Below are positions 37,004-55,463 of a stretch of 64,000 bases of DNA, in pieces. The DNA is from Flavobacterium sp. GT3R68. GTDB taxonomy: Bacteria > Bacteroidota > Bacteroidia > Flavobacteriales > Flavobacteriaceae. The notes beneath the pieces were generated by a model. It did no database searches and was not told where the DNA came from. It saw only the letters and a program-made list of their open reading frames with translations. Location: the NCBI RefSeq assembly GCF_007109225.1, contig NZ_VJZK01000001.1, forward strand, positions 640,731 to 704,730, written 5' to 3'. Position 1 is the first letter of the stretch. Every line of letters starts with the position of its first letter. The translations under genes and the position numbers were made by a program.

Positions 37004-40000
37004 ATGAAAAAAACATTACTATTAACATTAGTGTCTTTTTTGTTGTGCACCCAGTCCTATTCGCAAGTGGAAAGGCTTTGGACGCCCACAGCAAACAAAA
37101 ATGTTATCGCCTCTAAAAATGTAGAGAGACCATCTTTTCCTGCTGAGTTTCAGTTGTACGAACTGAACATCGCATCAATGAAACAACTTTTAGTAAATGC
37201 ACCTGACCGTGCCATTGCAAAAAAAGGAGTGATTATTTCCTTACCGAATATGCAAGGTATAATTGAGCAATTTGAAGTTTTTGAAGCTTCCAATTTTGCG
37301 GCAGATTTACAAGCACAATTTCCTGAAATTAGATCTTATGCTGGAAAAAGTCTACAAGACAGAACCGCTATTCTGCGTATGAGTGTTTCTCCACAAGGGA
37401 TTCAGACTATGGTTTTCAGAACGGATACCAGAAATGAATTTATGGAACCTTATTCTGAAGACGGGAAAATCTATGCGGTTTATAATTCTTCCAGAAGCAA
37501 AGGAAAACTGCCTTTCACTTGTATGACTGAGGATAAAGCTATCGCCGAGTCATTAAATAATCAGGTTACAGGAAAACGTTCAAGCGCTTCTGAATTGCTT
37601 ACATTCAGACTAGCCCTTTCCTGTACTGGAGAGTATGGAGCGTATTTTGGTGGTGCAGCGGGAGCTTTGGCTCAAATGAATGCTACCATGACTCGTGTGA
37701 ACGGTGTTTTTGAAAAAGATTTTACCATTCGTATGACAATGGTCAATAATGCTGCCGTAATTTACACAGTAGCTGCTTCTGATCCATATTCGCCAGCGGC
37801 ACAGATGGCTAACTGGAATGCTGAATTACAAACTACATTAACTGCTCAAATTGGGGAAGCCAATTATGATATTGGTCACCTTTTTGGCGCTTCCGGTGGT
37901 GGTGGAAATGCGGGTTGTATCGGTTGTGTTTGTACTGATGGTACCAAAGGTAGCGGAATCACATCACCTGGTAGCGGAGCTGCTATGGGAGATACTTTTG
38001 ATATTGATTATGTTGCCCACGAAATGGGGCACCAATTCGGTGGAAACCATACTTTTTCGCACGCTGTTGAATCAGCAGGTGTGAATGTGGAGCCGGGATC
38101 TGGATCGACCATCATGGGGTATGCCGGTATTACTAATTATGATGTTCAGATGAATTCCGACGCATATTTCCATTACGCTACAATTTCACAAGTGGAAGAT
38201 AATATGTTGAGCAAAACCTGTCCAACAAGAACCCCTATTGCAAATATAGCTCCGGTTGTGGATGCCGGATTGAATTACACGATTCCAAAAAGCACGCCTT
38301 TTGTCTTAACAGCTTCGGGAACAGATGTAAACGGCGATGCATTGACGTATTGCTGGGAACAAATTGACTCAGCGACAACTCAAACAAATGCAAACAGCGC
38401 AGCATCTGCGTCAAAAACTGCAGGTCCAAACTGGAGGTCTTATTCGCCTACAGCTTCACCAAGCAGATATTTCCCGGCTTTGGCAAGTGTAATTGCTAAC
38501 TCAGCTTTTACAACCGCAGTTTCAACTGATACAACGCCAATTAAAACGGAATATTTAAGTTCAGTAGCAAGATCATTGAATTTTGCGGTAACAGCAAGAG
38601 ATAATGTCGCAGGAGCTGGTTTAACAGATACGGATGGAATGTCGGTAACTGTTAATGCAACAGCAGGACCTTTTGCAGTGACTTCGCCAACTACAGCGGT
38701 TTCATGGGCGGTTGGAACCAACCAATCTGTAACCTGGAGTGTTGCAGGAACCACTGCAAATGGAGTGAATGCTGCATTTGTAGACATTTATCTTTCTAAT
38801 GATGGCGGAAACACATATCCAACCTTATTGGCTAGCAGAGTGCCAAATGACGGTACTGAAACGGTAACTATTCCTAATGCCGTGGGAACGACAAAAAGAA
38901 TAATGGTAAAAGGAAATAATCATATATTTTTCGATATCTCTAATGCAAACTTCTCTATTACAGCTCCGACAAGTGGATTTGCAGTTAGTTTCGATGGAAC
39001 AACGACTGGACAAAATAAGCAAGCTTGTCAAGGAACGAATGTTGCTTTCTCAATTCCTTACACTACTTATGGAGGTTTCTCTGGAACAACATCCTTTAGT
39101 GCCGCTGGTTTGCCTGTAGGAGCTATTGCCACTTTCTCTCCTGCAACTATTTCGGCAAACGGAGTTGTTACAATGACTATAAGTAATACTAACGGTGCAG
39201 CCCCAGGGGTTTATTCTATAGTTGTAACGGCAACTTCGGGAACGACTAAAACAGTACCATTCTATTTAGATTTGCTTAGTTCTAACTTTGGTGTTCAGGC
39301 ATTAACCGGACCAGCTGATTTGTCAACTGGAGTGAGTACTACAGCTGTGTTAACCTGGCCGGCAAATGCTGCTGCAACATCATATGATGTTCAGGTAGCT
39401 ACGGACAGCGGATTTACAACTATTGTTAATACCGGAACTGCTACAACAAATAGCTATAATGCTTCAGGATTGGCAGAGGGAACTCTATACTATTGGAGAG
39501 TTTTACCTAAAAATACAGGTTGTGCGGGGACCTATAGCGCAGCCTATAGATTTACAACCGGAACTTCAGCATGTAATGTGTATTCTAATAACACAACAGT
39601 AGCTATTGCAGATGGAACAGGCGCGAATGTTGCGGGAGCAGTTGCTTCTAAAACAATCGTTGTGCCTGCAGGCGGAAACCTGAATGATGTGAATGTTTCT
39701 CTTTCATTTACCCATACTTATATTGAAGATTTAGTAATTTGGTTGGTTCACCCTGACGGAACGCAAGTTTCTTTATGGAATAGAAATTGTGATAATGAGT
39801 TTAGTACTGTGAATGTTACTTTTTCTGATGGAAACGCAAGTGTTCCTGATACCGGATGTACAATTTCAACTGGAACCTTCTCTCCGGATTCTCCTTTATC
39901 AGCATTAAATGGTAAGGCATCGGCGGGAACATGGACATTAAGAGCTACCGATAACTATAATGGTGATACTGGATCTCTCTTGAACTGGTCATTGGATATA

Positions 40001-40285
40001 TGTGCCGCACAACCTTTGGGTGTTATTCAAAATTCGCTTTCTAATTTTGCAATCTATCCAAATCCAAACAAAGGAAACTTCACAGTTCAATTTAATTCTG
40101 ACTCAGGTAATGATGTTGCAGTTTCTGTTCATGATATCAGTGGAAGAAAGATTTTTGACAAAAAATATTCTAATAATGGATTATTTTCTCAAAACCTACA
40201 ATTGAATCATGTACAAACAGGAGTATATCTTGTAACAGTACAAGACGGAGACAATAAAATTGTAAAAAGAATTGTTGTAGAATAA
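37004..40285 (+). CDS. T9SS-exported reprolysin-like metalloprotease with type A sorting signal (paralogue 1)
   Basis: 1,093 aa. Signal peptide MKKTLLLTLVSFLLCTQSYS, then a propeptide-like region similar to the protease at 26501. The metzincin domain has GASGGGGNAGCIGCVC and the zinc site HEMGHQFGGNH (about residues 338-348) with Met-turn TIMGYAGIT. Further on are a PKD-like part, a fibronectin type III domain (about 762-852, 'AATSYDVQVATDSGF'), a P-domain (about 855-1002, FTHTYIEDLVIWLVHPDG) and a type A T9SS signal of about 75 residues (FAIYPNPNKGNF to IVKRIVVE). It is followed by a terminator and by a second paralogue. Confidence 0.93.
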   Translation: MKKTLLLTLVSFLLCTQSYSQVERLWTPTANKNVIASKNVERPSFPAEFQLYELNIASMKQLLVNAPDRAIAKKGVIISLPNMQGIIEQFEVFEASNFAADLQAQFPEIRSYAGKSLQDRTAILRMSVSPQGIQTMVFRTDTRNEFMEPYSEDGKIYAVYNSSRSKGKLPFTCMTEDKAIAESLNNQVTGKRSSASELLTFRLALSCTGEYGAYFGGAAGALAQMNATMTRVNGVFEKDFTIRMTMVNNAAVIYTVAASDPYSPAAQMANWNAELQTTLTAQIGEANYDIGHLFGASGGGGNAGCIGCVCTDGTKGSGITSPGSGAAMGDTFDIDYVAHEMGHQFGGNHTFSHAVESAGVNVEPGSGSTIMGYAGITNYDVQMNSDAYFHYATISQVEDNMLSKTCPTRTPIANIAPVVDAGLNYTIPKSTPFVLTASGTDVNGDALTYCWEQIDSATTQTNANSAASASKTAGPNWRSYSPTASPSRYFPALASVIANSAFTTAVSTDTTPIKTEYLSSVARSLNFAVTARDNVAGAGLTDTDGMSVTVNATAGPFAVTSPTTAVSWAVGTNQSVTWSVAGTTANGVNAAFVDIYLSNDGGNTYPTLLASRVPNDGTETVTIPNAVGTTKRIMVKGNNHIFFDISNANFSITAPTSGFAVSFDGTTTGQNKQACQGTNVAFSIPYTTYGGFSGTTSFSAAGLPVGAIATFSPATISANGVVTMTISNTNGAAPGVYSIVVTATSGTTKTVPFYLDLLSSNFGVQALTGPADLSTGVSTTAVLTWPANAAATSYDVQVATDSGFTTIVNTGTATTNSYNASGLAEGTLYYWRVLPKNTGCAGTYSAAYRFTTGTSACNVYSNNTTVAIADGTGANVAGAVASKTIVVPAGGNLNDVNVSLSFTHTYIEDLVIWLVHPDGTQVSLWNRNCDNEFSTVNVTFSDGNASVPDTGCTISTGTFSPDSPLSALNGKASAGTWTLRATDNYNGDTGSLLNWSLDICAAQPLGVIQNSLSNFAIYPNPNKGNFTVQFNSDSGNDVAVSVHDISGRKIFDKKYSNNGLFSQNLQLNHVQTGVYLVTVQDGDNKIVKRIVVE

Positions 40286-40300
40286 TTTATAGATAATGAC

Positions 40301-40334
40301 AAAAAAGGGGAGACATAACAGTTTCCCCTTTTTT
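40301..40334 (+). terminator. Terminator after metalloprotease paralogue 1
   Basis: AAAAAAGGGGA paired with TTCCCCTTTTTT across a 10-nt loop, 15 bp past the stop. Confidence 0.85.
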
Positions 40335-40582
40335 ATTTCCTGTTATTGCAATTACAAATAGCCTGATTATACCATTTCCCGCACTATTAACGAGCGGGGC
40401 CATCGGCATCGACAGGTAAGTCATCTTAAAAGTTTAATAGTTAGGCGGCCAACGTTTATATCGCGTTTCAGATAACAGGACGAAATTACTCAATCGCAGG
40501 AAGAATTGTAGTACACCAATCCCTCTGTTATAGTAAAATACTCACATTTTAAGCAATTATGTTTTATTATTATGTTAAAATA

Positions 40583-40612
40583 TTGGATTATATATATTAT
40601 TTGATACATTTG
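40583..40612 (+). promoter_or_regulatory. Promoter of the second type A metalloprotease gene
   Basis: TTG (40583-40585), 19-bp spacer, TACATTTG (40605-40612). The start codon at 40656 is 43 bp downstream, close to the 48 bp seen for paralogue 1. Between the upstream terminator and this promoter lies an unexplained GC-richer stretch (about 40375-40530). Confidence 0.88.
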
Positions 40613-40655
40613 CCCCAATTACCCTTCTACCTATAAATTATAAAATTAAAAAAGC

Positions 40656-43439
40656 ATGAAAAAAACATTACTATTTTTGTCATTGTCAATTTTCACTTTG
40701 GGCCAAGTAACCGCCCAGACCAATAAATACTGGACAATGCACAGACAAGGCAGCGATAAAATGCCGACTGCTAAAGGAGTGGCAAGATTGTCATTTCCTG
40801 TTAAGTTTGATTTGTATGATGTAAATATTGACCCGTTAAGACAGGCTTTGTTTTCTACAGTAAATTCAACTTCTAAAAATAGCGTGGTAATCTCTTTACC
40901 GAACGTTAAAGGAGACTTAGAGCAATTCGAAATGTACGAAGCGTCTAATTTTGAACCGGCTTTACAAGCACAATTTCCAGAAATACGTGCGTATTCAGGA
41001 AGAGGAATCACAGATAAATATGCCACCGTAAAGTTAAGTATTTCTCCACAAGGGATTCAAACTATGGTTTTCAGAACCGACAAAGAAAATGAGTTTATGG
41101 AACCATATTCACAAGATGGTAAAGTTTATGCAGTATTCAATTCTTCCAGACAAAAAGGAAAATTGGCTTGGTCATGTTCTACAGATGATAAAAATTTGAT
41201 TGCCAGTGTGGATAAACAACTGCCAAGCAGCGCTAAATCAAGTGCAGGACAATTAAAAACCATGCGTTTGGCACAGTCTTGTAACGGTGAATATGCCGCT
41301 TATTTTGGTGCAACAACAGCAGGTACTGCTGGAGATAAAGCTTTGGTTATGTCAGCATTCAATGCTACATTAACCCGTTGTAATGGTGTTTATGAAAAAG
41401 ATCTGGCTTTACACCTTAATCTTGTTGCCAGTACTACAAACGTAATTTTTTGTAACCCTGCAACAGATCCATATTCTGCCACTTTAGGAAACTGGAATGC
41501 AGAATTGCAAAACACATTGAGTTCAAGCCTTACCGGTGCCGCTACTTCATTGGCAGCTAATAATGCTGCTTATGATATCGGACATATGTTCGGTGCTACT
41601 GGTGGTGGTGGAAATGCAGGTTGTATCGGTTGTGTTTGTACAGATGATACAGCAAGTACAACTGATCAAAACAAAGGATCGGGCATTACTTCACCAGCCG
41701 ATGGAATACCTATGGGAGACAATTTTGATATTGATTATGTAGTGCATGAGGTTGGTCACCAATTAGGTGGAAACCATACTTTTTCTAACAGTAATGAAGG
41801 TTCAGGTGTAAGTAAAGAAGTTGGTTCAGGTGTAACTATCATGGGGTACGCAGGAATTACTTCGCAAGATGTTGCGCCGCACTCAATCGATATTTATCAT
41901 CAAGCGACTATTGCCCAGATACAGACTAATTTAGGAACTAAATCTTGTCCAGTGACTACGAATATAGCTGCTAACAATGCTACTCCGGTAGCGAACGCGG
42001 GTGCAGATATCACCATTCCAAAAAGCACACCATTCATGCTTACCGGTTCTGCGACAGACGCAAACTCTGGTGATGCATTAACGTACTGTTGGGAACAAAA
42101 TAATGATGGTGGTGCTTCAACTGGTGCCAATAGTGTTGCCAGTGTAACAAAAACTGTAGGTCCAAACTTCACCTCATGGTCACCGACGGCTTCACCTACC
42201 AGATATTTCCCTCAAATGGCAACTATTTTAGCGAATTCGCAAACAACTGCCGGCACAGGAAATGATGGGATAAATGTGGAGGCGCTAAGTTCAGTTGCCA
42301 GAACGTTAGCTTTCAGATTAACTGTTAGAGACAATGCTCCTTACAGTGCAACTGCACCTATAAAAGTTGGACAAACTGCTTTTGATGATATGGCTGTTAC
42401 AGTTGATGCTACTAAAGGACCATTTGATGTGACTTCACAAAATGTGGATGGTATTTCATGGGTTCAGGGAACTACACAAACAATTACATGGACGGTAAAC
42501 GGCACTAATACAATGACAGGTGCTGCGAATGTAGATATCTTGCTTTCTTCTGACAACGGAGCAACCTATTCCACAGTTTTAGTTGCGAATACACCAAATG
42601 ATGGTACCGAAGCTTTTACTGTACCTAATGTCGCGTTCCCATTTTGTAGAATAATGGTAAAACCAACTGGAAATGTGTTTTTTGATGTAAATGCAAAAAC
42701 GTTTGCTATTGGATACACTGTTACCAGTACTACCATTTGTACAGATTATACAAGAACTTTCAGCCCACCTCAGGCTATGACTACAGGTTGGACAGGATAC
42801 GGAATCCCCGTTACAGATAATTATATTATAACAGATGCTAACTTTCAAGTAGTGGCTACTGCTGCAAGAACGAATCAAGTATCTATCGGTTTAGGTAAAC
42901 CTGGAACTGGTAATGTAGATATGATAATGGTTGACGCAAATTGCACCAATGCAAAAGTTAATTTGAACGCAGTTTTTGATGATGAAGGTGCTGTTTTCAA
43001 TTGTAATGCTACTGCTACGGGTGCTGCTTATATTCCAGTCAATGCTTTATCAAGTGCTGATGGGATGTCATCTTTAGGGACTTGGTCATTGGCTGCAAAA
43101 AGTACTCTTACCACAAACACGCTAACAAGTGCTACATTAACATTATGCCGTGTGGATACAACAACAACGTTATTAAACCAGGATTTCGGTTTAGCAGAAT
43201 TCTCTCTATATCCTAATCCAAACAAGGGTAATTTCACAATTCAGTTCAATTCTGCAACTAACAATGATGTGAATATCTCGGTTCATGATATCAGCGGAAG
43301 AAGAATCTTTGATAAGAAATATAACAATACAGGAATGTTTACTCAGAACCTTCAATTGAATAATGTACAGACAGGCGTTTACGTCGTTACTGTTCAAGAT
43401 GGGGATAGCAAAGTTGTAAAAAGAATTGTTGTAGAATAA
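40656..43439 (+). CDS. T9SS-exported reprolysin-like metalloprotease with type A sorting signal (paralogue 2)
   Basis: 927 aa. Signal peptide MKKTLLFLSLSIFTLGQVTA; the first 20 nt of the gene are identical to paralogue 1. The metzincin domain has GATGGGGNAGCIGCVC and zinc site HEVGHQLGGNH (about residues 364-374), Met-turn TIMGYAGIT. Compared with paralogue 1 it lacks the fibronectin III domain; a diverged P-domain-like region (about 690-835) precedes the type A sorting signal (FSLYPNPNKGNF to VVKRIVVE), which is nearly identical to that of paralogue 1. A loop insertion (about 205-215 and 280-290) lengthens the catalytic domain. Tandem duplication followed by domain loss is the simplest reading. 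Confidence 0.92.
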   Translation: MKKTLLFLSLSIFTLGQVTAQTNKYWTMHRQGSDKMPTAKGVARLSFPVKFDLYDVNIDPLRQALFSTVNSTSKNSVVISLPNVKGDLEQFEMYEASNFEPALQAQFPEIRAYSGRGITDKYATVKLSISPQGIQTMVFRTDKENEFMEPYSQDGKVYAVFNSSRQKGKLAWSCSTDDKNLIASVDKQLPSSAKSSAGQLKTMRLAQSCNGEYAAYFGATTAGTAGDKALVMSAFNATLTRCNGVYEKDLALHLNLVASTTNVIFCNPATDPYSATLGNWNAELQNTLSSSLTGAATSLAANNAAYDIGHMFGATGGGGNAGCIGCVCTDDTASTTDQNKGSGITSPADGIPMGDNFDIDYVVHEVGHQLGGNHTFSNSNEGSGVSKEVGSGVTIMGYAGITSQDVAPHSIDIYHQATIAQIQTNLGTKSCPVTTNIAANNATPVANAGADITIPKSTPFMLTGSATDANSGDALTYCWEQNNDGGASTGANSVASVTKTVGPNFTSWSPTASPTRYFPQMATILANSQTTAGTGNDGINVEALSSVARTLAFRLTVRDNAPYSATAPIKVGQTAFDDMAVTVDATKGPFDVTSQNVDGISWVQGTTQTITWTVNGTNTMTGAANVDILLSSDNGATYSTVLVANTPNDGTEAFTVPNVAFPFCRIMVKPTGNVFFDVNAKTFAIGYTVTSTTICTDYTRTFSPPQAMTTGWTGYGIPVTDNYIITDANFQVVATAARTNQVSIGLGKPGTGNVDMIMVDANCTNAKVNLNAVFDDEGAVFNCNATATGAAYIPVNALSSADGMSSLGTWSLAAKSTLTTNTLTSATLTLCRVDTTTTLLNQDFGLAEFSLYPNPNKGNFTIQFNSATNNDVNISVHDISGRRIFDKKYNNTGMFTQNLQLNNVQTGVYVVTVQDGDSKVVKRIVVE

Positions 43440-46442: not shown

Positions 46443-46522
46443 GCCCGGATGGCGGAATTGGTAGACGCGCTGGTCTCAAACACCTGTGGGAAACCGTGCC
46501 GGTTCGACTCCGGCTCCGGGTA
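46443..46522 (+). tRNA. tRNA-Leu (anticodon CAA)
   Basis: Acceptor GCCCGGA pairs with TCCGGGT, discriminator A at 46522, no encoded CCA. D arm GCGG...CGC, anticodon stem-loop CTGGT-CTCAAAC-ACCTG giving CAA (reads UUG), a class II variable arm (TGGGAAACCGT), and T arm GCCGG-TTCGACT-CCGGC. The anticodon stem has a T-T mismatch (28-42 pair). The 3' 15 bases including the discriminator are repeated at 55449-55463, so this gene is the integration site of the neighbouring island. Confidence 0.93.
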
Positions 46523-46523
46523 C
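46509..46523 (+). other. attL core of the island (within tRNA-Leu)
   Basis: TCCGGCTCCGGGTAC, identical to 55449-55463. With one mismatch the match continues 7 bp (TAC, then T or G, then TAAAAA). Confidence 0.85.
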
Positions 46524-46572: not shown

Positions 46573-46579
46573 ATTGCAG

Positions 46580-46600
46580 TTGCCCAACCATTGCCCAACG
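46580..46600 (+). repeat. Candidate integrase arm-type sites, left
   Basis: Two direct copies of TTGCCCAAC, 11 bp apart (one helical turn), 57 bp inside attL. The same double motif, in the same orientation, stands at 55278-55298 near attR. Confidence 0.6.
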
Positions 46601-46626
46601 AGTAGATAAAACTTAATGTTTTTAAT

Positions 46627-47649
46627 TTAAGATATTAATTTATGAGAAACATCAACATTCGTTACTCGATAAGTATTTACTTCGATACATTCTGTTTTTT
46701 TTTCTGTAAAAAGAACAACATTTACACCTCCAAGATGTAATGAACTATTAAACATGATTCCATCGGCATTAGAAATATTTCTAATATATTCACAAATAAA
46801 TTGAGTAGGAATATATTCTAATTCTGAATCATATCTTCTCAATGGTTTGGATAAATCAATACTTATGTTTTTCTTTAAAATCACACTTTTTATATACTCT
46901 TTGATACTGTCACTGTTTAAAAAAAGGCTTGTCGTTTCTGTGAAATCAACTAAAGAAATTTCTTCTCCTTTTCGCACCTTGAATTTACCCACACTAACTT
47001 CGTCTAGATAGGTTGCTCTAGTTTCGTAAAATGTGGTGCTTTCTGACATGCTCAAGTATAAATATGGAATTCCTTGTGGATTTGCTCTACCACCTAAGGA
47101 TTTTGTCTTGTCCGGACATCCCATTTCTAAAGTATTGAATGCGCTTTGAGCATCATTTGGATGGATTCTAGCTCTAAAAAGTACTGAATCCTCATGCAAA
47201 GATGAGTTTCTTTGAAAAAATGTATCCCATCTAAAATCTTCAAATGATTTTAGATCAGTTAAAAATCTACTTTCCCATTTAAGGTCTTCTTTTAATTTTG
47301 ACCAAAAGGATATGCAGTTAAATATTTCTTCTTCATATCTAACTTTCTTTAAAGGGGTGTTGATTGTGGAATCTAGTTTTGTTAAAACTTCGGATAGAAT
47401 GCCAAGACCTTTGTCTTTGTTTGTAAAAAAGTTCCAGTCTTGATGAATTAAATCGAGTAAAGGAATGCCATTTTCATCTTCTTCGAAGGATGATAGGAAG
47501 TCAGAAAAAAAGTCTAAAAGTTCTTCAATCGCAATTAGTTCTGATTTGGGAGGGTTATTACAAAAATTGCAATGTCCATATATAGATAGATTAGTTTCTA
47601 TAAATAATTTAAGGTCGTCATCGTTAAAGCAGTTACTACAAACATTCAT
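46627..47649 (-). CDS. HEPN/RES N-terminal domain protein with RES NAD+-consuming domain
   Basis: 340 aa. The N-terminus has two zinc-ribbon pairs (CSNC at 4-7 and CNFC at 27-30), followed by an alpha-helical region (about 40-150) as in proteins named 'HEPN/RES N-terminal'. The C-terminal half is a RES domain: LFRARI (about 158-163), a GGRANPQGIPYLYLSMSE block (about 187-204) with the conserved Glu in TTFYETRA, and YIPTQFICEYIR with DGIMFNSS near the end. RES domains of the known toxins split NAD+ by phosphorolysis or hydrolysis; that this one does is inferred from the motifs. It is the last gene of a three-gene operon (14-bp gap after sce7725). The usual Xre/MbcA antitoxin of RES toxins is absent. 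Confidence 0.85.
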   Translation of the reverse strand: MNVCSNCFNDDDLKLFIETNLSIYGHCNFCNNPPKSELIAIEELLDFFSDFLSSFEEDENGIPLLDLIHQDWNFFTNKDKGLGILSEVLTKLDSTINTPLKKVRYEEEIFNCISFWSKLKEDLKWESRFLTDLKSFEDFRWDTFFQRNSSLHEDSVLFRARIHPNDAQSAFNTLEMGCPDKTKSLGGRANPQGIPYLYLSMSESTTFYETRATYLDEVSVGKFKVRKGEEISLVDFTETTSLFLNSDSIKEYIKSVILKKNISIDLSKPLRRYDSELEYIPTQFICEYIRNISNADGIMFNSSLHLGGVNVVLFTEKKTECIEVNTYRVTNVDVSHKLIS

Positions 47650-47663
47650 AAATTGATGAAATA

Positions 47664-48587
47664 TTAAATTATCCCATTTATTAACTCAAGATGGTTTTTT
47701 ATAGAAATCTTTTTTACCATTCCAAGTCCTGGATATTTAGATTCATTATGATAATTTCTCAATTCGTTTGTAGCCTCATTATGAATATCATTCGAATTAA
47801 TAAAAGTAACAGCTTTTTCTAAAGCTTCTGCAAACTTACCTTGGATATTTGCTCTGTCAAAATTACTTTTCGATGTAAAATGTCTAATCCAAACCTCATC
47901 ATTCTCTTTCTGATATGTTAAGTGTATTGCTACTGCAAAAGGCGCACTCCCACCTTCAAGAAAATCACTAACTAGAACCGTGTAATCAGAAAACCCATGA
48001 TATCCTTCATCCTTATAAAATAAATGTTCTTCAGAAAATTTTTCTTCAGACATTTCTAAATAGTCACTATTCCTTTTTTGTCCATTAAATTTATCATCTA
48101 ATCTTATAAGAAACTTGTCTTGTCCTGAAAGAGATCTTTTTAAAGTCCTGTTTTCTTGAGAAACAACTATGTATTTTACTTTTTGAGAAACAACTAACTG
48201 GCTAAAACTTTCATTACTTGTATCAGTTAAACCATTACATATTATCATCACATCGGAATAACCTGTTTCAACAATCAATTTTCCTATCTCATCATAATTA
48301 TTCGACACAATAAACGCAGGAATCCAACTATCTTCTCCTATTAAACAATCACCTAAACCATCGATTATCTGATTATAATTATCAATTTCTCCAACTTGAG
48401 GATTCAATACTAAAGCAAACTTAATACTTGCATTTCTTAAAATTGGCAAAGCAATCTTCATGCTATTGAAAGTTTTTTTCACGGGCTCAATTATTGGAAT
48501 TACATTATTATGTTCTCCTCGACAACCAGCAAACTCTCTTAATGCAATTAACTCAAATTGCCTTCCTCTTAAATATGGATAATACAT
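47664..48587 (-). CDS. sce7725-family ('beta protein') protein
   Basis: 307 aa. The N-terminus MYYPYLRGRQFELIALREFA followed by 'NVIPIIEPVKKT' is the signature of the sce7725 family, related to phage beta proteins; the function is unknown. Alternating beta-strand/helix periodicity suggests a TIM-barrel-like fold, but I see no catalytic motif. It starts 4 bp after the sce7726-family gene and ends 14 bp before the RES gene, so all three are made from one mRNA. Confidence 0.85.
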   Translation of the reverse strand: MYYPYLRGRQFELIALREFAGCRGEHNNVIPIIEPVKKTFNSMKIALPILRNASIKFALVLNPQVGEIDNYNQIIDGLGDCLIGEDSWIPAFIVSNNYDEIGKLIVETGYSDVMIICNGLTDTSNESFSQLVVSQKVKYIVVSQENRTLKRSLSGQDKFLIRLDDKFNGQKRNSDYLEMSEEKFSEEHLFYKDEGYHGFSDYTVLVSDFLEGGSAPFAVAIHLTYQKENDEVWIRHFTSKSNFDRANIQGKFAEALEKAVTFINSNDIHNEATNELRNYHNESKYPGLGMVKKISIKNHLELINGII

Positions 48588-48591
48588 AGCT

Positions 48592-49470
48592 CTAAATTTG
48601 TATAGTTTTATTTAATTTTTCAAATAAAATCTGATAATTTCTATCATCAATATTCAACGCTAACCCTATTTGTCGTAATTCTTTAGCGAAAGATTTTATA
48701 TTTATAGTATTAGATTTGCGTTTCTTTAATTGTTCAATAAATAATATATTTAAGTCTTCTGTAGGAATTTGTTTTATTAAATCACTACAAATATCAAACA
48801 TGTTAAAACTATTCATTTTAGGCAATCCGCCATAATACTGATTGACAATCGCTTTATATTCATTTGTTCTTATTGAACGAATGATACTTTCTGGATTTAT
48901 TTCTAAATTTATTTTTGCAGGTCTAATCTCGGTCATTTTTAAAGACTTTGAGTTGCTGCTTAAAGCAATTAAACCTACCGAATCATCCTCTTTTAAATAT
49001 TTATCAATTAATGCGTCATGTGTAACAATATAAGATTCTTTAAAAATTTTACTATAATCCGATAATTGTCCAATAAGTCTTTTGTTTGAATCTAATTCTG
49101 TTTTAATTTCAAAAGCCTTGCTTGTTCCGTTAAATAAAACAATATCGGCTATAGAGTCTCCTACTCTAAATTCATTTATTGCAACTGTATCTTTTACTCC
49201 ATAAGAGTTTATAAGTAATTCATTTATAAAAGTATTTTTATAAACATACTCATTTCGATATTGTTTACTCATTTCTTTATACACAAAACGAATATAATCA
49301 TGATAAGTAATAATATCATTTCCAATCTTTAGTTGGTCGTATTTGATGATTTTAGAATTAATAAATGAATAATCATCATTCCTCAATAATTTTGAAAAAT
49401 ATGTACTTGAAAAAATTGAAGAATAGCTCCTCATTCTATTCAATTCTATATTTTGAATTTGATTTTTCAT
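48592..49470 (-). CDS. sce7726-family protein with PD-(D/E)XK-like core
   Basis: 292 aa. The middle (about residues 85-140) reads INEFRVGDSIADIVLFNG and AFEIKTELDS, i.e. E-x(n)-D-x(n)-E-x-K, the pattern of a PD-(D/E)XK nuclease core; it is followed by a segment on 'QLSDYSKIFKESYIVTH' like other sce7726 members. The C-terminal third is helical. First gene of the operon, with a good -7 element just upstream. Nuclease activity is inferred from the motif only. In other genomes sce7726 and sce7725 genes occur side by side, as here. Confidence 0.85.
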   Translation of the reverse strand: MKNQIQNIELNRMRSYSSIFSSTYFSKLLRNDDYSFINSKIIKYDQLKIGNDIITYHDYIRFVYKEMSKQYRNEYVYKNTFINELLINSYGVKDTVAINEFRVGDSIADIVLFNGTSKAFEIKTELDSNKRLIGQLSDYSKIFKESYIVTHDALIDKYLKEDDSVGLIALSSNSKSLKMTEIRPAKINLEINPESIIRSIRTNEYKAIVNQYYGGLPKMNSFNMFDICSDLIKQIPTEDLNILFIEQLKKRKSNTINIKSFAKELRQIGLALNIDDRNYQILFEKLNKTIQI

Positions 49471-49498
49471 TTTATCTCTACTGACAGATTGTTTTTTG

Positions 49499-49506
49499 CA
49501 AAGGTA
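49499..49506 (-). promoter_or_regulatory. -7 element of the sce7726/sce7725/RES operon
   Basis: Minus-strand TACCTTTG, 28 bp before the start codon of the sce7726-family gene; a matching -33 TTG is not evident. Confidence 0.6.
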
Positions 49507-50000
49507 ATTTAATCCTTTGCTTTAAAGCCAATTTATATTATTAGAAGTATATGCAGGAAAAACAACCAAATTTTACCGAAATATAATATGTGAATATATA
49601 AAAAACAACATTAAAAACTCCTTTTAATTGTTCTTTATTTATTGTAATGCTTATTTCCTATAGACTAATTCCTATTTTAAATACCTTTGCGTTATAAATG
49701 TATTTCATTTAACTTTAACTATTATAAGTCAAGTTCTATTCTTGCAACACTTCTATATTTGAATTCGCAAATTTTACCGCTAAACTCAATTATAACAATC
49801 CTAACACTTGTTTTAAAATAGTAAATCCTACTAATAAACTGCAACAGAACATTGTAATTTATTAATAGGATTTGTTGCATTGTTAAAAAAAGGTGTCGGT
49901 GTTTTTAAAATGCAATGCAACCTTATTGCGGTAATAATAATGAAACAGTTTACAGTACCTTTTATCTTAGACTTACACAGTTTATCGAATAGTGCCATTG
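49507..50000. other. AT-rich gap upstream of the defence-like operon
   Basis: No convincing gene. The only signal I see is a plus-strand TACCTTTG at 49682-49689 pointing away from all island genes. A 61-codon minus-strand frame (49831-50016) has no recognisable product. Confidence 0.45.
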
Positions 50001-50234: not shown

Positions 50235-51173
50235 CTAATCTTGAATAGTTATTAAAATACCATTTTCAAAATATAAATACTTTTTTAAACTATAAACATA
50301 TTGTTCATGATTACCGTATGGAGTTGTAGTGCGGTTTATATCCCGTGGTTTGCCCCATGAAGCAATGCACATTGATTTTGTCCATCCAATTTTAACCTTA
50401 TGATTTAAAATAGCCTCTCCATTTTCTAAACCATATTTATTAATTATATCCTCTCTTCTTTGATTTTTCTTTTTTTCGTTCTCTAATTTGCTCTTTGTTT
50501 GCTTTTCAATTTCGTGCTTTTTTTGTGCAATTTTTATTTTAACGTCTTGTTTTCGCCGTTCTTTTTCTTTAGCCTCATTTATTTTTTTTTGCTTTATATA
50601 TTCTATTGAATCTTTTATTTCTCCTTGTCTTCTTTCAATAACAAATATGCTGTCATTCTTTTTTTTAGCCAAGAGCATGTCGGAAATTCTTTGCCTTTTT
50701 AGTTCTTCTTCCCTTTTCGTTTGCTCGTTATGTTCTTTAATTCTTTCTTTTGTTTTTTCTTCTTGTATTTTATAATAAAAACTCTCTTTTTTATAATTTT
50801 CTAAATCAAAATATACGCTATAAGCCTTCGCAGTTTGAGTTAAGTTGTTAAAACGTACTTCTATGTCATTCGGATTATCAGGAATTTCTCCTTTACTTCG
50901 GGCTTCTAAATACCCCTCAATACTTCTAACGGCGTCTAAAAGTGGCCAATAATATCCACGTGAATCTGAACGTGATTCAAATTCCATTAGTTTATGATAT
51001 TCTGTGCCATTTAACCGTTGTACTTTTATCGTATCCGACTTAGTTATAATATAGCTAGATATGTGTTGTATTATTGGAGTTTTCTTTTGTCCGTATGTCA
51101 ATATGTTCAATGAAAAAAAGAAAAAAAGTAGAATTGTTTTTTTTGTAGTACTTGTTTTTTTAGGTATTTCCAT
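50235..51173 (-). CDS. Secreted coiled-coil protein with BamE/SmpA-like C-terminus
   Basis: 312 aa. Signal peptide (about residues 14-28, LLFFFFSLNILTYG). A globular part to about 120 is followed by a very long charged coiled coil (about 125-245, rich in Lys, Glu and Arg). The last 65 residues (GLENGEAILNHKVKIGWTK, then ASWGKPRDIN, EQYVYSLKKYLYFENG) have the 'G-x-W/M-x(n)-WGxP...E.WVY....YLYFENG' pattern of small outer-membrane lipoprotein/BamE-like domains. Likely periplasmic. As island cargo its role is unknown. Confidence 0.72.
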   Translation of the reverse strand: MEIPKKTSTTKKTILLFFFFSLNILTYGQKKTPIIQHISSYIITKSDTIKVQRLNGTEYHKLMEFESRSDSRGYYWPLLDAVRSIEGYLEARSKGEIPDNPNDIEVRFNNLTQTAKAYSVYFDLENYKKESFYYKIQEEKTKERIKEHNEQTKREEELKRQRISDMLLAKKKNDSIFVIERRQGEIKDSIEYIKQKKINEAKEKERRKQDVKIKIAQKKHEIEKQTKSKLENEKKKNQRREDIINKYGLENGEAILNHKVKIGWTKSMCIASWGKPRDINRTTTPYGNHEQYVYSLKKYLYFENGILITIQD

Positions 51174-51449: not shown

Positions 51450-52640
51450 TTATTGATTGTATTTTGTATTGTAATTTTGAACTGTCAAACGATTGTATTC
51501 TGCAATGGTTTTCTTTTGCTCCTGATAGCTCGAAAACGGTTTTGCGAACTCATCCTTTTTAGGCTCTTTTTCAATCTCTTTTTTGAAAGTATTTTGTATA
51601 ATGTTTAACTCTTTATCCAAGAGGTTAAGCGTGCTACAGAATGGGTTTTCAAAAACACGGTTAATCGTGCTACACTTTTTATTAATTTCTTCTCTAGTTT
51701 TATTATCAAAAAGTTGGTTAACCGTGCTACACTTTTTTTCAATCTCAATCAGGATTTTTTGAAACCTTTTTTTTGAAAATTTAGTCGTGATGCTGTCTAA
51801 TCTTTTCAAATGTCGATCCCTATCATTTGGTTCTAAATCATTAATCCAATACCTAGGGTTGGAATAATCCCTCAACGCATTTAACTTGTGTTCTGTAAGC
51901 TTCTTTTTGTCGATGGAGTAATCATAATGTCTAATTTCGTTGAACCTCTTTATAAGCAACTTTGAAACTTTATCCAAGGTGTTTTCGTTTATGTCCTCAA
52001 ACGTCTTAATATCAATGACAATGTTTTTGTCTTTTAGCCCATCCATTTTTAGGGTTTTCAACTCTATACGGATTACATTTTCTGCCATATCGTATTGATA
52101 TAATTTACTGTAAATCTTGAGTAAATAATTACAGTATATTACTTTTGAACTATTACCGTGATGACTAAACTCAAACATTATGTTTTTGCGATATAGCAAC
52201 CCTTTTATAAACAATATAGGGTTGTAATCTAATATTATATTTACTCCAAATTCGATGTTCTGAAAAATCATTTGAGATGCTTTACAGTCAAATAAATCTT
52301 CTAAATGAGTTCTAACCTCAACAATGTTGTTTAGTGTAAATTGATTGCCATTAAATCCCTTATACAATTTCTTTTCGTCGTAATTGGGTGCTTTTATTCC
52401 GTTGAGTTCATTCCACATTTTATGAATACTGCCTACAAAAAACACGTGAGTTCTTTCGGGTTTGCCTTCTTCTTTAATTCTCTGAATAGTGATTTCGCAA
52501 AAGTGATATTTCGCAATAAAAACACTTTCGTTAATTTCGCCAGTAGTTTTTGAAATTGTGCTTTTAAAGTCCAGGACTTTTAATTTTAGCAACTTTTGAG
52601 TATCAATATTTAAGAGGTATATTTTTGTGTAATCTACCAT
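51450..52640 (-). CDS. Rep-like protein of Bacteroidota integrative elements
   Basis: 396 aa. The sequence (start MVDYTKIYLLNID, 'HFCEITIQRI', 'FVGSIHKMWNELNGIKAPNY', 'YKGFNGNQFTLNNIVEVR') belongs to a family I know from flavobacterial integrative elements, usually labelled hypothetical and thought to be replication-initiator-like; the assignment is not certain. An RCR-type catalytic Tyr motif is not obvious. The C-terminal third contains three CSTxN repeats because the DNA there carries three copies of a 16-bp repeat. It is probably expressed with or near the HTH gene upstream. Confidence 0.6.
   Translation of the reverse strand: MVDYTKIYLLNIDTQKLLKLKVLDFKSTISKTTGEINESVFIAKYHFCEITIQRIKEEGKPERTHVFFVGSIHKMWNELNGIKAPNYDEKKLYKGFNGNQFTLNNIVEVRTHLEDLFDCKASQMIFQNIEFGVNIILDYNPILFIKGLLYRKNIMFEFSHHGNSSKVIYCNYLLKIYSKLYQYDMAENVIRIELKTLKMDGLKDKNIVIDIKTFEDINENTLDKVSKLLIKRFNEIRHYDYSIDKKKLTEHKLNALRDYSNPRYWINDLEPNDRDRHLKRLDSITTKFSKKRFQKILIEIEKKCSTVNQLFDNKTREEINKKCSTINRVFENPFCSTLNLLDKELNIIQNTFKKEIEKEPKKDEFAKPFSSYQEQKKTIAEYNRLTVQNYNTKYNQ
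51623..51731 (+). repeat. Three iteron-like repeats inside the Rep-like gene
   Basis: GGTTAANCGTGCTACA at 51623-51638, 51659-51674 and 51716-51731, differing only at the N (G, T and C). Conservation holds at all other positions, including third codon positions, so it is not explained by the encoded CSTxN peptide alone. Confidence 0.75.
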
Positions 52641-52764: not shown

Positions 52765-53043
52765 TTAGCCGTTTAATGGTGTTAAACTTGCTTCTACTTC
52801 GGAACGTAGGAAGTAAACACGCCCCGATATTCCTAGAGGTCGTAATTTGCCGTTTTTTTGCCAGTTTGCTACTGTTGAAATATCCACATCAAACATTTCA
52901 CTTACCTGTTTTCTTGTCAGATAGTCATTTGGTTGTTTCGGCGCGAAATTTTTAAGAAATTCGTCTAGTTGGATTTTAATTTCCCCGCTAATTTGGGTTT
53001 GAAGTTCCTGCGGGCTAGTACTGATAAATTGAATTTGTGCCAT
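52765..53043 (-). CDS. Excisionase-like helix-turn-helix protein
   Basis: 92 aa. The C-terminal half is a MerR/excisionase-type HTH (about residues 41-62: 'YLTRKQVSEMFDVDISTVANW') followed by a short wing (GRVYFLRSEVEA). Such proteins accompany tyrosine recombinases in Bacteroidota elements and act as excisionase or regulator. Here it lies between the integrase side and the Rep-like gene, with a palindromic operator-like site upstream. Confidence 0.85.
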   Translation of the reverse strand: MAQIQFISTSPQELQTQISGEIKIQLDEFLKNFAPKQPNDYLTRKQVSEMFDVDISTVANWQKNGKLRPLGISGRVYFLRSEVEASLTPLNG

Positions 53044-53886: not shown

Positions 53887-55206
53887 TTAGTTGTCAGTTC
53901 CGTTTTTAATCAACTTCATTTCCGGTTTTTTGTCTTTGTTTATGGTTTCGTAAAACTTCATAAATAAATCGGCGTTGCTGTCTTTGTCTTCACTTTTATT
54001 GATATAGGTTAAAAATAAACTTTCTTTAGAATGTCCAGTTATTCCAATTAGCACTGCTGTTGGTACAATTTTATAGTAATTAGTAGCAAAAGAACGCCTA
54101 AAACTATGCGAGGTTATCAATTTATGTTTTTCATAAAATTTCAGCTCTTTACGCCCTGTTTTTGCATCAAATATTTTGCCCTCGGTAAGGGTTTCAATTT
54201 TTGCAATTTTGCAAACTTCTTTAATGTAAAGATTCAATTTTTGAGTGCTTATTTTATAAGGGAAACTGTTTTCTATTATGTCAATAACGTGAGGTGCTTT
54301 AATACCAATTGTAACCTCTTTTTTTGTTTTTTGCTGTATTATATCTAAATACATATTTCCTTTACTATATCGAATATTCTCTTTAGTAATATCCATTAAG
54401 TCGCCTCCACGTTGCCCAATTTCGCACCCAAATAGCACCCATTTGCGGGCGTTGTTGTACGCCTCGCCTTTTATGTCGGCGGTTCTAATGATTTCCAATT
54501 CCTCAAAGGACAAAGTTTGTATAAATCGGTCTTCGTCTCTTTCTGAAAAAATAGTAATTTGCTTTGCAAATGGGTTAACTTGAATGCCTTTTTTTTCTGC
54601 TTCAATACTAATTGTTTTAATATTTGCAATATGTTTTGAAGCTGTATTTACAGCATATTTTTTTGTTTTGATTAGCCAGTTTGTAAACTTATCAATCAGG
54701 GTTTCGTTAATATCAATAAAGTGGATTTGCTTTTTTGTTTTGGTTTGATATTCTGAAATTATACTTTTAGTTGAGATAAAACTGTTTTCTCTGCTTTTTG
54801 ACAACCCCAGCTTATGACCGCCTTTTATTTTTACTTTTCGTGTACTCGCATTGTCGATAATGTCCTGAATGTAATTTACTATCAATCCTGTATCTGTTTT
54901 CTCAATACGTTCAAAACAATCATTTATTTTAGTTTCGAGCCATAAAGCATCTATTAAAACACTTTTGCCTAAATCGGTGTTGAGGTTGGTTAAAACAAAG
55001 GTTTCTAACTTTTTAAGGTTATTAGATAATCGTTTGTTTTCTGCAAGAGTTTGCTTTGGCAGTCCATTTGGCTCACTCCAGTTGTTTGGGTTGATTGTAA
55101 AGCCTGTATTTAGCTCAAATACGTTATCTCGATTGATTGATAAACGAATTTTTATGGAAACGTTTTTATTTGCCTTGCTTCTTAATCGGTATTGAATTGT
55201 TGCCAT
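53887..55206 (-). CDS. Tyrosine recombinase (site-specific integrase)
   Basis: 439 aa from ATG 55206 (MATIQYRLRSKANKNVSI), the family's usual arm-binding start; the in-frame start at 55245 adds 13 residues that overlap the repeats upstream. Domains: N-terminal arm-binding region (about 1-90), SAM-like core-binding domain (about 130-230), and the catalytic domain with Arg in GCEIGQRGGDLMDI (about 270), HSFRRSF (HxxR, about 375), TGHSKE (about 396) and the Tyr in LTYINKSED (about 408). It probably drives integration at tRNA-Leu; the gene lies next to attR with its promoter side facing it. Confidence 0.93.
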   Translation of the reverse strand: MATIQYRLRSKANKNVSIKIRLSINRDNVFELNTGFTINPNNWSEPNGLPKQTLAENKRLSNNLKKLETFVLTNLNTDLGKSVLIDALWLETKINDCFERIEKTDTGLIVNYIQDIIDNASTRKVKIKGGHKLGLSKSRENSFISTKSIISEYQTKTKKQIHFIDINETLIDKFTNWLIKTKKYAVNTASKHIANIKTISIEAEKKGIQVNPFAKQITIFSERDEDRFIQTLSFEELEIIRTADIKGEAYNNARKWVLFGCEIGQRGGDLMDITKENIRYSKGNMYLDIIQQKTKKEVTIGIKAPHVIDIIENSFPYKISTQKLNLYIKEVCKIAKIETLTEGKIFDAKTGRKELKFYEKHKLITSHSFRRSFATNYYKIVPTAVLIGITGHSKESLFLTYINKSEDKDSNADLFMKFYETINKDKKPEMKLIKNGTDN

Positions 55207-55212
55207 TTTATA

Positions 55213-55249
55213 ACTTTTGAACGGTTGAACTTTTGAACACTTCAAAAGT
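55213..55249. repeat. Repeats upstream of the integrase gene
   Basis: Three TTGAAC units at an 8-bp period (55217, 55225, 55233). The first is part of ACTTTTGAA, which has an exact inverted partner TTCAAAAGT at 55241-55249. Confidence 0.6.
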
Positions 55250-55277
55250 AATGAAATTTGTACTAGATTTCACAAAG

Positions 55278-55298
55278 TTGCCCAACCGTTGCCCAACC
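55278..55298 (+). repeat. Candidate integrase arm-type sites, right
   Basis: Two direct copies of TTGCCCAAC separated as in the left pair (46580-46600), in the same orientation, 150 bp inside attR and just upstream of the integrase start. Confidence 0.6.
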
Positions 55299-55448: not shown

Positions 55449-55463
55449 TCCGGCTCCGGGTAC
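55449..55463 (+). other. attR core of the island
   Basis: TCCGGCTCCGGGTAC, identical to the tRNA-Leu 3' end at 46509-46523. Upstream the T-loop is degenerate (GGTTTCAAT instead of GGTTCGAC), so no complete second tRNA exists. Confidence 0.85.

What the first reader, a model, noticed from the sequence alone, without database searches (positions are those of the whole stretch)
46627..49506. Three-gene operon sce7726 / sce7725 / HEPN-RES on a tRNA island: candidate defence system
A PD-(D/E)XK-like sce7726 protein, an sce7725 beta-family protein and a RES-domain protein with a zinc-ribbon/HEPN-type N-terminus are packed with gaps of 4 and 14 bp behind one promoter, as cargo of a small integrated island. 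RES enzymes deplete NAD+ (established for toxins of that family), so a nuclease or sensor pair plus an NAD+-consuming effector would fit abortive infection. No Xre/MbcA antitoxin is present, so control must differ from classical RES toxin-antitoxin pairs. I am not aware of a characterised system with these three together.
Basis: partly seen in the sequence, partly recalled or inferred. Interest (0 to 1): 0.82.

Follow-up and report, generated by a model that had tools for sequence, protein, structure and literature searches.

The report
Likely RES-armed gop-beta-cII-like defence operon
A three-gene unit found in many bacteria resembles the toxin-antitoxin-like phage defence carried by the phage satellite P4, but has a probable NAD-destroying enzyme in place of the P4 toxin, so it may make infected cells shut down.

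Summary
In detail: minus-strand sce7726, sce7725 and RES genes (46627-49470) are packed on a ~9-kb tRNA-Leu island. The trio is not local: present in 12 of 13 other genomes of the phylum sample with sce7725, 74 of 80 genome-contig loci and 15 of 18 viral-contig loci (ten near-identical). A block of about 3.17 kb holding just the trio is shared across genera. RES residues are invariant in 57 of 57 relatives; the fold matches the NAD+-phosphorylase toxins MbcT and NatT. Two of three genes relate to P4's anti-phage gop-beta-cII: sce7726 is the cII family; sce7725 is a remote relative of beta, which suppresses Gop. Against a fixed trio: six sce7726-sce7725 pairs lack RES, so RES looks like an exchangeable effector. 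Full-length close RES relatives had sce7725 in 15 of 15 genomes. 'HEPN' is wrong: the N-terminus is a zinc ribbon plus, in half the family, the 'HEPN/RES-NTD1' helical domain. Verdict: new variant of a known kind. Antitoxin action, trigger and phage defence are inferred, not shown.

The parts
46627..47649 (-). RES protein, 340 aa: N-terminal zinc ribbon (C4, C7, C27, C30), helical middle, C-terminal RES domain (aa 167-322 = 46684-47151)
   Evidence: PF08808 1e-14; R159, R161, R188, N190, Y198, T205, E209, S302, N310 in 57 of 57 aligned members, C7 and C27 57/57, C4 56/57, C30 53/57; AF2 pLDDT 93.2, VIA-align Z 12.7 to MbcT 6fkg_B, 12.0 to NatT 8qnq_C
47664..48587 (-). sce7725 family, 307 aa: TIM-barrel-like protein, remote relative of P4 beta; proposed antitoxin/regulator
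   Evidence: NF033831 9.2e-88; hhalign to P4-type beta E 1.8e-6, prob 89.8, 253 columns; AF2 pLDDT 92.4, pTM 0.91; VIA-align Z up to 11.7, barrels
48592..49470 (-). sce7726 family, 292 aa: PD-(D/E)XK-type nuclease-like protein, homologue of P4 cII; proposed sensor or nuclease
   Evidence: NF033832 2.7e-51; PADLOC 'cll' 1.3e-20; E100, D109, E121, K123, D127, Q135, Y139 in 58 of 58; hhalign to the P4-type cII group E 7.5e-27
49471..49605 (-). upstream region shared with the closest relative L031; holds TACCTTTG at 49499-49506, a candidate -7 element
   Evidence: blastn block 46621-49605 to L031 at 81%; motif read from sequence, consensus recalled, not tested
46443..46523 (+). tRNA-Leu(caa), integration site; its 3' end 46509-46523 is one att copy
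   Evidence: ARAGORN; repeat
55449..55463 (+). second att copy, distal end of the island
   Evidence: short empty-site match in 7 of 29 loci of relatives
53887..55245 (-). tyrosine-type integrase of the island
   Evidence: PF00589 1.7e-7, PF13102 9.6e-10
52765..53043 (-). small HTH_17 protein, excisionase-like, of the island
   Evidence: PF12728 2.2e-8; phrog_66 excisionase and transcriptional regulator 1.1e-7

Best explanation
The operon is a mobile, modular abortive-infection cassette of the gop-beta-cII kind. sce7725, a TIM-barrel-like relative of P4 beta, keeps the RES protein inactive. sce7726, a PD-(D/E)XK-type protein of the cII family, detects or cuts invading nucleic acid or otherwise reports infection. 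When the balance is disturbed the RES enzyme is released and destroys NAD+ (by phosphorolysis, as reported for MbcT and NatT), so the cell stops growing before phage is made. Shown here by computation: gene families, invariant active-site residues, predicted folds of RES and sce7725, co-inheritance, sharing as one block, and no full-length close RES relative without sce7725 in the genomes sampled. Inferred: that sce7725 is the antitoxin, that sce7726 is the trigger, that NAD+ is the substrate, that the outcome is phage defence.
For: sce7726 and P4 cII are one family (P4 cII NF033832 2.5e-44; hhalign E 7.5e-27; the D/E/K/Q signature is invariant in 58 of 58 and 7 of 7). sce7725 and P4-type beta are related (hhalign E 1.8e-6; three comparisons of unrelated proteins with these profiles gave E 0.1-0.32). 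P4 gop-beta-cII protects against lambda and P1, and Gop is toxic without beta (PMC9122126, passages). Full-length, close RES relatives (E below 1e-90) lay next to sce7725 in 13 of 13 genomes of the window's phylum sample and 2 of 2 of the Psychrobacter class sample, seed included. sce7725 can lack RES, as an antitoxin may outlive its toxin. RES overlaps the sce7725 stop by 4 nt in 27 of 101 trios. Distance matrices of 53 trios agree (r 0.85-0.88 against at most 0.24 in 1000 permutations). A ~3.17-kb block at 96% identity with just the trio is shared between L105-L107 and L108/L110; window and L031 share only 46621-49605 within the island. Type I methyltransferase models hit 5 of 130 flanking proteins and 0 of 139 controls.
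Against: No experiment. sce7726-sce7725 pairs without RES exist in L030, L043, L113, L244, L246, L247, so the pair may have a job of its own; outside the window's phylum, none of the four non-seed sce7725 genes found by the family search had RES beside it. Gene order differs from P4 (gop-beta, with cII convergent). beta-sce7725 homology is remote: BLASTP found nothing significant, PF14350 did not hit the window protein, hhalign probability is 89.8%. A barrel with many invariant polar residues could be an enzyme rather than a plain antitoxin. More distant RES relatives in the same samples have no sce7725 beside them (for example G012 and G475). The neighbour control is small and was chosen by hand.
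Confidence: 0.5

Rival explanations
1. sce7726 plus sce7725 is a self-sufficient restriction-like nuclease pair (PD-(D/E)XK-type nuclease with a TIM-barrel-like partner that recognises or modifies something), and RES is a fail-safe effector added to it.
For: The pair occurs without RES in six loci (L030, L043, L113; L244, L246, L247). In L245 sce7726 with a truncated sce7725 sits between a ResIII (PF04851) and a DNA methylase (PF01555) gene, and in L057 an Eco57I-type restriction-methylase gene ends about 70 bp before sce7726. The nuclease-type signature is invariant.
Against: In P4, Gop is reported toxic without beta (PMC9122126), which points to toxin-antitoxin logic; full-length close RES relatives had sce7725 in 15 of 15 genomes.
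Confidence: 0.25
2. The trio is an addiction (toxin-antitoxin) module that stabilises mobile elements and has no role against phage.
For: It lies on the window's island, on plasmids and in an ICE-like region; RES domains are known toxins (PMC2701414 and PMC11535050, passages).
Against: A three-gene layout with a conserved nuclease-like gene is more than addiction needs (inference); the related P4 system was reported anti-phage; type I restriction genes were found in the flanks and not in the controls.
Confidence: 0.15
3. The RES protein modifies a protein or nucleic acid (ADP-ribosyltransferase, like ParT on Prs) instead of depleting NAD+.
For: ParT, an ADP-ribosylating RES protein, is also a fold match (Z 9.9); the extra zinc ribbon and helical part could bind a target (inference).
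Against: MbcT and NatT, named as NAD+ phosphorylases (PMC12457610 passages), match better (Z 12.7 and 12.0). NCBI's product name for members is 'RES family NAD+ phosphorylase', which is not a test.
Confidence: 0.1

Closest known systems
gop-beta-cII of phage satellite P4 (PMC9122126, passages)
   Same: cII is the same family as sce7726 with the same invariant D/E/K/Q signature; beta is a remote homologue of sce7725; a third, toxin-like gene; carried by an integrating element
   Different: toxin is Gop (133 aa, no RES hit), not RES; cII is convergent, not first in the operon; beta belongs to PF14350, sce7725 to NF033831; PADLOC recognises only the sce7726 gene here, under the name 'cll'
RES-Xre toxin-antitoxin systems (MbcTA, NatRT, ParST, RES-Xre of P. 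putida)
   Same: RES domain and fold; conserved RES residues
   Different: no Xre/MbcA/ParS antitoxin gene beside it; extra zinc ribbon and helical N-terminal part; partnered with sce7725 and sce7726
Zinc ribbon - HEPN/RES-NTD1 - RES proteins noted by Anantharaman et al. 2013 (PMC3710099, table passage)
   Same: the domain architecture of gene 3 was listed there, in a paper on conflict systems
   Different: no mention of sce7725/sce7726 in the passages seen; RES was then predicted to be an RNase
RES + sce7725 + sce7726 on an integrative element of P. aeruginosa PA_HN002 (PMC9394441, passages)
   Same: the same three genes named side by side in an annotation
   Different: no function or system proposed in the passage seen

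Membership tests
gop-beta-cII system | cII gene (sce7726 family) | tested here: met
   P4 cII NF033832 2.5e-44, window NF033832 2.7e-51, BLASTP 1e-13, hhalign 7.5e-27
gop-beta-cII system | beta gene (PF14350) | tested here: not met
   PF14350 does not hit the window protein at E<=1; remote homology only, hhalign 1.8e-6
gop-beta-cII system | gop gene | tested here: not met
   the third gene is a RES protein; P4 Gop has no RES hit
gop-beta-cII system | toxin neutralised by beta; protection against phage | not testable with these tools
   needs bench work
RES domain (PF08808) | domain hit above cut-off and conserved residues | tested here: met
   55.3 bits against cut-off 23.2; PF08808 in 57 of 57 members; invariant residues
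RES domain (PF08808) | RES fold | tested here: met
   Z 12.7 MbcT, 12.0 NatT, 9.9 ParT, 9.2 P. putida RES over 131-164 aligned residues, rmsd 3.0-4.0; plain Foldseek E only 4e-3 at best, but the top five rows are RES proteins
RES-Xre toxin-antitoxin system | adjacent Xre/MbcA/ParS antitoxin | tested here: not met
   neighbours are sce7725 and, on the other side, the tRNA
HEPN | HEPN domain in the N-terminus | tested here: inconclusive
   no HEPN model hit in the window protein nor among 57 members at E<=0.01; PF18870, which is not a HEPN domain, hits 28 of 57; the fold of the N-terminal part was not searched alone
PD-(D/E)XK nuclease superfamily (sce7726) | D...E-x-K core with Q-x3-Y | tested here: met
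   D109, E121, K123, Q135, Y139 in 58 of 58; the motif definition is recalled
PD-(D/E)XK nuclease superfamily (sce7726) | fold and nuclease activity | not tested
TIM barrel (sce7725) | eight-fold beta/alpha barrel | tested here: inconclusive
   confident model; the 50 rows shown, Z 10.4-11.7, look like barrel enzymes throughout (fold names recalled), but Foldseek had no hit below E 1e-3

The most novel reading that the evidence does not exclude
The beta/sce7725 family is a new class of TIM-barrel antitoxin-regulators that, together with a cII/sce7726 nuclease-like sensor, controls exchangeable suicide effectors: Gop in P4 and a RES NAD+ phosphorylase here. It would be the first immune system known with a RES enzyme as effector.
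Probability: 0.4. Interest if true: 0.8.

Novelty: new variant of a known kind. Interest (0 to 1): 0.6.

Why it matters
RES toxins are widespread, yet a 2024 study states that none of the RES toxin-antitoxin systems had been implicated in bacterial immunity (PMC11535050, passage). A conserved mobile cassette that ties a RES enzyme to relatives of a reported anti-phage system makes that question directly testable. It would also suggest what the orphan families sce7725 and sce7726, and P4 beta and cII, do: a common core with interchangeable effectors.

Tried and rejected
Rejected: 'HEPN' as the name of the N-terminus. Rejected: 'neighbours only here'. Rejected: RES as a fixed part of every sce7726-sce7725 locus. 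Tried: BLASTP of sce7725 against P4 beta, nothing significant. Tried: structural search of sce7725 for a specific function; it gives barrel proteins in general. Tried: sequence search of solved structures with the three profiles; nothing convincing. Tried: whether loss of RES goes with loss of the sce7725 N-terminal motif; so in L030, not in L043 or L113, dropped. Tried: RES remnants in the loci without RES; tblastn with four RES queries gave nothing better than E 0.28 (the L112 query was cut by guessed coordinates and may be out of frame). Tried: whether other HEPN/RES-NTD1-RES proteins have a sce7725-like partner; two 303- and 305-aa neighbours are not related. Left out of counts: two matches below the family cut-off (G289, G320); two broken or cut RES hits without visible sce7725 that end at contig ends (G098, G216). 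The threshold 'full length, E below 1e-90' was set after seeing the gap, and these searches score only the best few candidates of a genome. Literature: seven searches listed no report of this trio as a defence system; the library lacks most subscription papers. Eight papers were seen as passages only; Ghisotti 1990 was not seen and is cited through PMC9122126.
Full report
WHAT IS THERE. Three minus-strand genes stand at 46627-49470: sce7726 (48592-49470), sce7725 (47664-48587) and a RES protein (46627-47649), with gaps of 4 and 14 bp. NCBIfam names the first two (2.7e-51 and 9.2e-88); Pfam names the RES domain of the third (1e-14). They are cargo of an island of about 8.95 kb between a 15-bp repeat of the tRNA-Leu(caa) 3' end (46509-46523 and 55449-55463), with a tyrosine integrase and an excisionase-like HTH protein towards the far end. 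In 7 of 29 loci fetched from relatives, the first 29-45 bp of the right flank directly follow the same tRNA; the match is short and hairpin-like, so the empty site is likely rather than proved.

CONSERVATION. Of 395 genomes of that phylum, 14 have an sce7725 gene over the family cut-off, the window's own included; two weaker matches were left out. Of the other 13, 12 have sce7726-sce7725-RES in the same order and strand; one (G012, locus L030) has the pair only. Of 80 loci from genome contigs (the best 80 of 566 confirmed, so biased to close relatives), 74 have hits to all three in order, two of them (L070, L100) with broken reading frames; five of the six misses run into a contig end and one (L043) lacks RES. 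Of 18 viral-contig loci 15 have the trio; ten of these (L116-L124, L126) have the same identity and E-values and are not independent; L113 has the pair only, and L127 and L128 have a truncated sce7725 and no RES. Four genome-contig loci (L055, L088, L096, L098) repeat contigs of the first set, so the 101 trios include four duplicates. Record titles span Bacteroidota, Psychrobacter, Virgibacillus, Marinilactibacillus, Humibacter, Fibrobacter and others; some are metagenome bins. Of the plasmid and phage-collection hits, six of 12 plasmid records and all three phage-collection records were viewed: Moraxella, Shinella, Rhizobium, Pseudorhizobium, a Salmonella ICE-like region and an unannotated faecal clone carry the trio; an Enterococcus plasmid and the matching Listeria-phage record have sce7725 with a GNAT gene and no RES, and an Arthrobacter plasmid has a short sce7725 followed by IS elements.

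RESULTS AGAINST A FIXED TRIO. In samples of the classes of Psychrobacter (340 genomes) and Humibacter (394 genomes), sce7725 was found in 3 genomes each, seeds included. Of the four non-seed cases, three (L244, L246, L247) have the pair without RES, and one (L245) has sce7726 with a truncated sce7725 between restriction and methylase genes. The pair is therefore the core and RES an addition. The converse did not occur: full-length close RES relatives (E below 1e-90) had sce7725 beside them in 13 of 13 genomes of the window's phylum, own included, and in 2 of 2 of the Psychrobacter class, seed included. Weaker RES matches (E above 1e-50), such as those in G012 and G475, are other subfamilies without sce7725 next to them.

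ONE UNIT. The three distance matrices of 53 trios correlate at r 0.85-0.88, against a maximum of 0.24 in 1000 permutations. Loci of Chryseobacterium, Kaistella and Gelidibacter share with those of Avrilella and Sinomicrobium a block of about 3.17 kb at 96% identity that begins about 270 bp before sce7726 and ends 35 bp after RES; no second shared piece over 500 bp was printed between the two groups. Between the window and its nearest relative (F. pectinovorum, L031) the only match found is 46621-49605 (81%). RES overlaps the sce7725 stop by 4 nt in 27 of 101 trios.

THE PROTEINS. RES: R159, R161, R188, N190, Y198, T205, E209, S302 and N310 are invariant in 57 of 57. The NatT study names R23, R82, Y93, S184 and N193 as active-site residues (PMC11535050); R188/Y198 and S302/N310 here lie 10 and 8 residues apart against 11 and 9 there, but no residue-level structural alignment was made. 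The model (pLDDT 93.2) matches MbcT (Z 12.7, rmsd 3.3, 158 aligned), NatT (Z 12.0), ParT (Z 9.9) and P. putida RES (Z 9.2). The N-terminus has four zinc-ribbon-type cysteines and, in 28 of 57 members, a hit to PF18870, a helical domain fused to HEPN or RES domains, not HEPN itself (PMC3710099 passage). sce7726: E100, D109, E121, K123, Q135, Y139 invariant in 58 of 58, the signature of PD-(D/E)XK nucleases (recalled). sce7725: a confident model with a TIM-barrel-like fold (Z up to 11.7; no Foldseek hit below E 1e-3); invariant polar residues include N62, D201, H236, K292, K293 and H299 (59 of 59).

LINK TO A KNOWN SYSTEM. In P4 gop (247-648) and beta (651-1718) face cII (1746-2540). P4 cII is an sce7726 protein (2.5e-44; profile comparison 7.5e-27); the P4-type group of seven keeps the same D, E, K, Q residues. 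beta (PF14350) and sce7725 share no significant BLAST similarity but align as profiles over 253 columns (E 1.8e-6, probability 89.8%); unrelated proteins against the same profiles gave E 0.1-0.32. Rousset et al. report that gop-beta-cII protects against lambda and P1 and cite Ghisotti 1990 (not seen) for Gop toxicity without beta (PMC9122126, passages). beta with a cII-type gene recurs in P. putida, S. fredii, Azospirillum, Neorhizobium, Persicobacter and a Pasteurella phage. P4 Gop has no RES hit; one hydrophobic window passed a simple threshold in it and none in the Pasteurella counterpart, so its kind of action is open.

DEFENCE SURROUNDINGS. Of 146 flanking proteins chosen from 42 loci, 130 (cut by the residue limit) were scanned against PADLOC at E<=1e-15; 139 proteins from 20 regions of 13 genomes served as control. 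Flanks matched 130 families, headed by type I methyltransferase (5 members); controls matched 19 families, among them DpdF-type and BrxH-type helicase models that also occur in the flanks, and none of restriction-modification. The control is small and its regions were picked by round coordinates. Separately, L057 has an Eco57I-type gene, L245 a restriction operon and L065 a SIR2-like gene beside the trio or pair.

MECHANISM. The best-supported reading is a toxin-antitoxin-like abortive-infection cassette: sce7725 restrains, sce7726 senses or cuts, RES depletes NAD+. The enzyme class is well supported; the roles of the other two proteins are carried over from P4 and from the occurrence pattern; the trigger is unknown.

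NOVELTY. The gop-beta-cII kind is known, the zinc ribbon-NTD-RES architecture was listed in 2013, and the three genes were named side by side in one genome paper (PMC9394441). What appears new is the recognition of the three as one widespread unit and as a RES-armed relative of gop-beta-cII; seven searches of the paper library listed no such report.

Noticed in passing
window 46578-46599 and 55276-55297: A 22-bp direct repeat (AGTTGCCCAACC.TTGCCCAAC, 95% identical) lies inside both ends of the island, possibly arm sites of the integrase.
   Followed up: partly
window 51450-52640: 396-aa island protein without a Pfam hit above cut-off; parts recall phage replication initiators (from memory). 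It contains 16-bp repeats GGTTAA.CGTGCTACA at 51623, 51659 and 51716.
   Followed up: no
window 50235-51173: 312-aa island protein whose C-terminus matches phrog_11546 (1.1e-8), of unknown function.
   Followed up: no
window 37004-43439: Two neighbouring paralogous metalloprotease-like genes (HExxHxxGxxH, similar C-terminal tails; motif recalled).
   Followed up: no
L245 4016-5168: sce7726 and a truncated sce7725 sit between a ResIII subunit and a DNA methylase gene, nested in a restriction operon.
   Followed up: partly
L169 3306-5513: Enterococcus plasmid: sce7725 with another, nuclease-looking protein in the sce7726 position (by eye) and a GNAT acetyltransferase behind, a possible further variant.
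   Followed up: partly
L163 1952-4796 and L164 1740-4716: beta and cII are preceded by a protein with a hydrophobic segment and one with an HExxH (ImmA/IrrE-like, recalled) motif, a possible extended gop-beta-cII system.
   Followed up: no
L151 2652-3563 and L156 2685-3602: RES proteins of other subfamilies (HEPN/RES-NTD1 shown for the one in L156) have an unknown 303-305-aa gene upstream, unrelated to sce7725; perhaps another RES partner family.
   Followed up: partly
L190 (relative G451), just after tRNA-Leu: 75 bp of the island's first end follow the same tRNA at 88% identity, so a related element seems to use this site in another species.
   Followed up: no
L100 5142-7934: In a Chitinophaga genome sce7726 and RES of the trio are split over more than one frame and sce7725 is short.
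   Followed up: no
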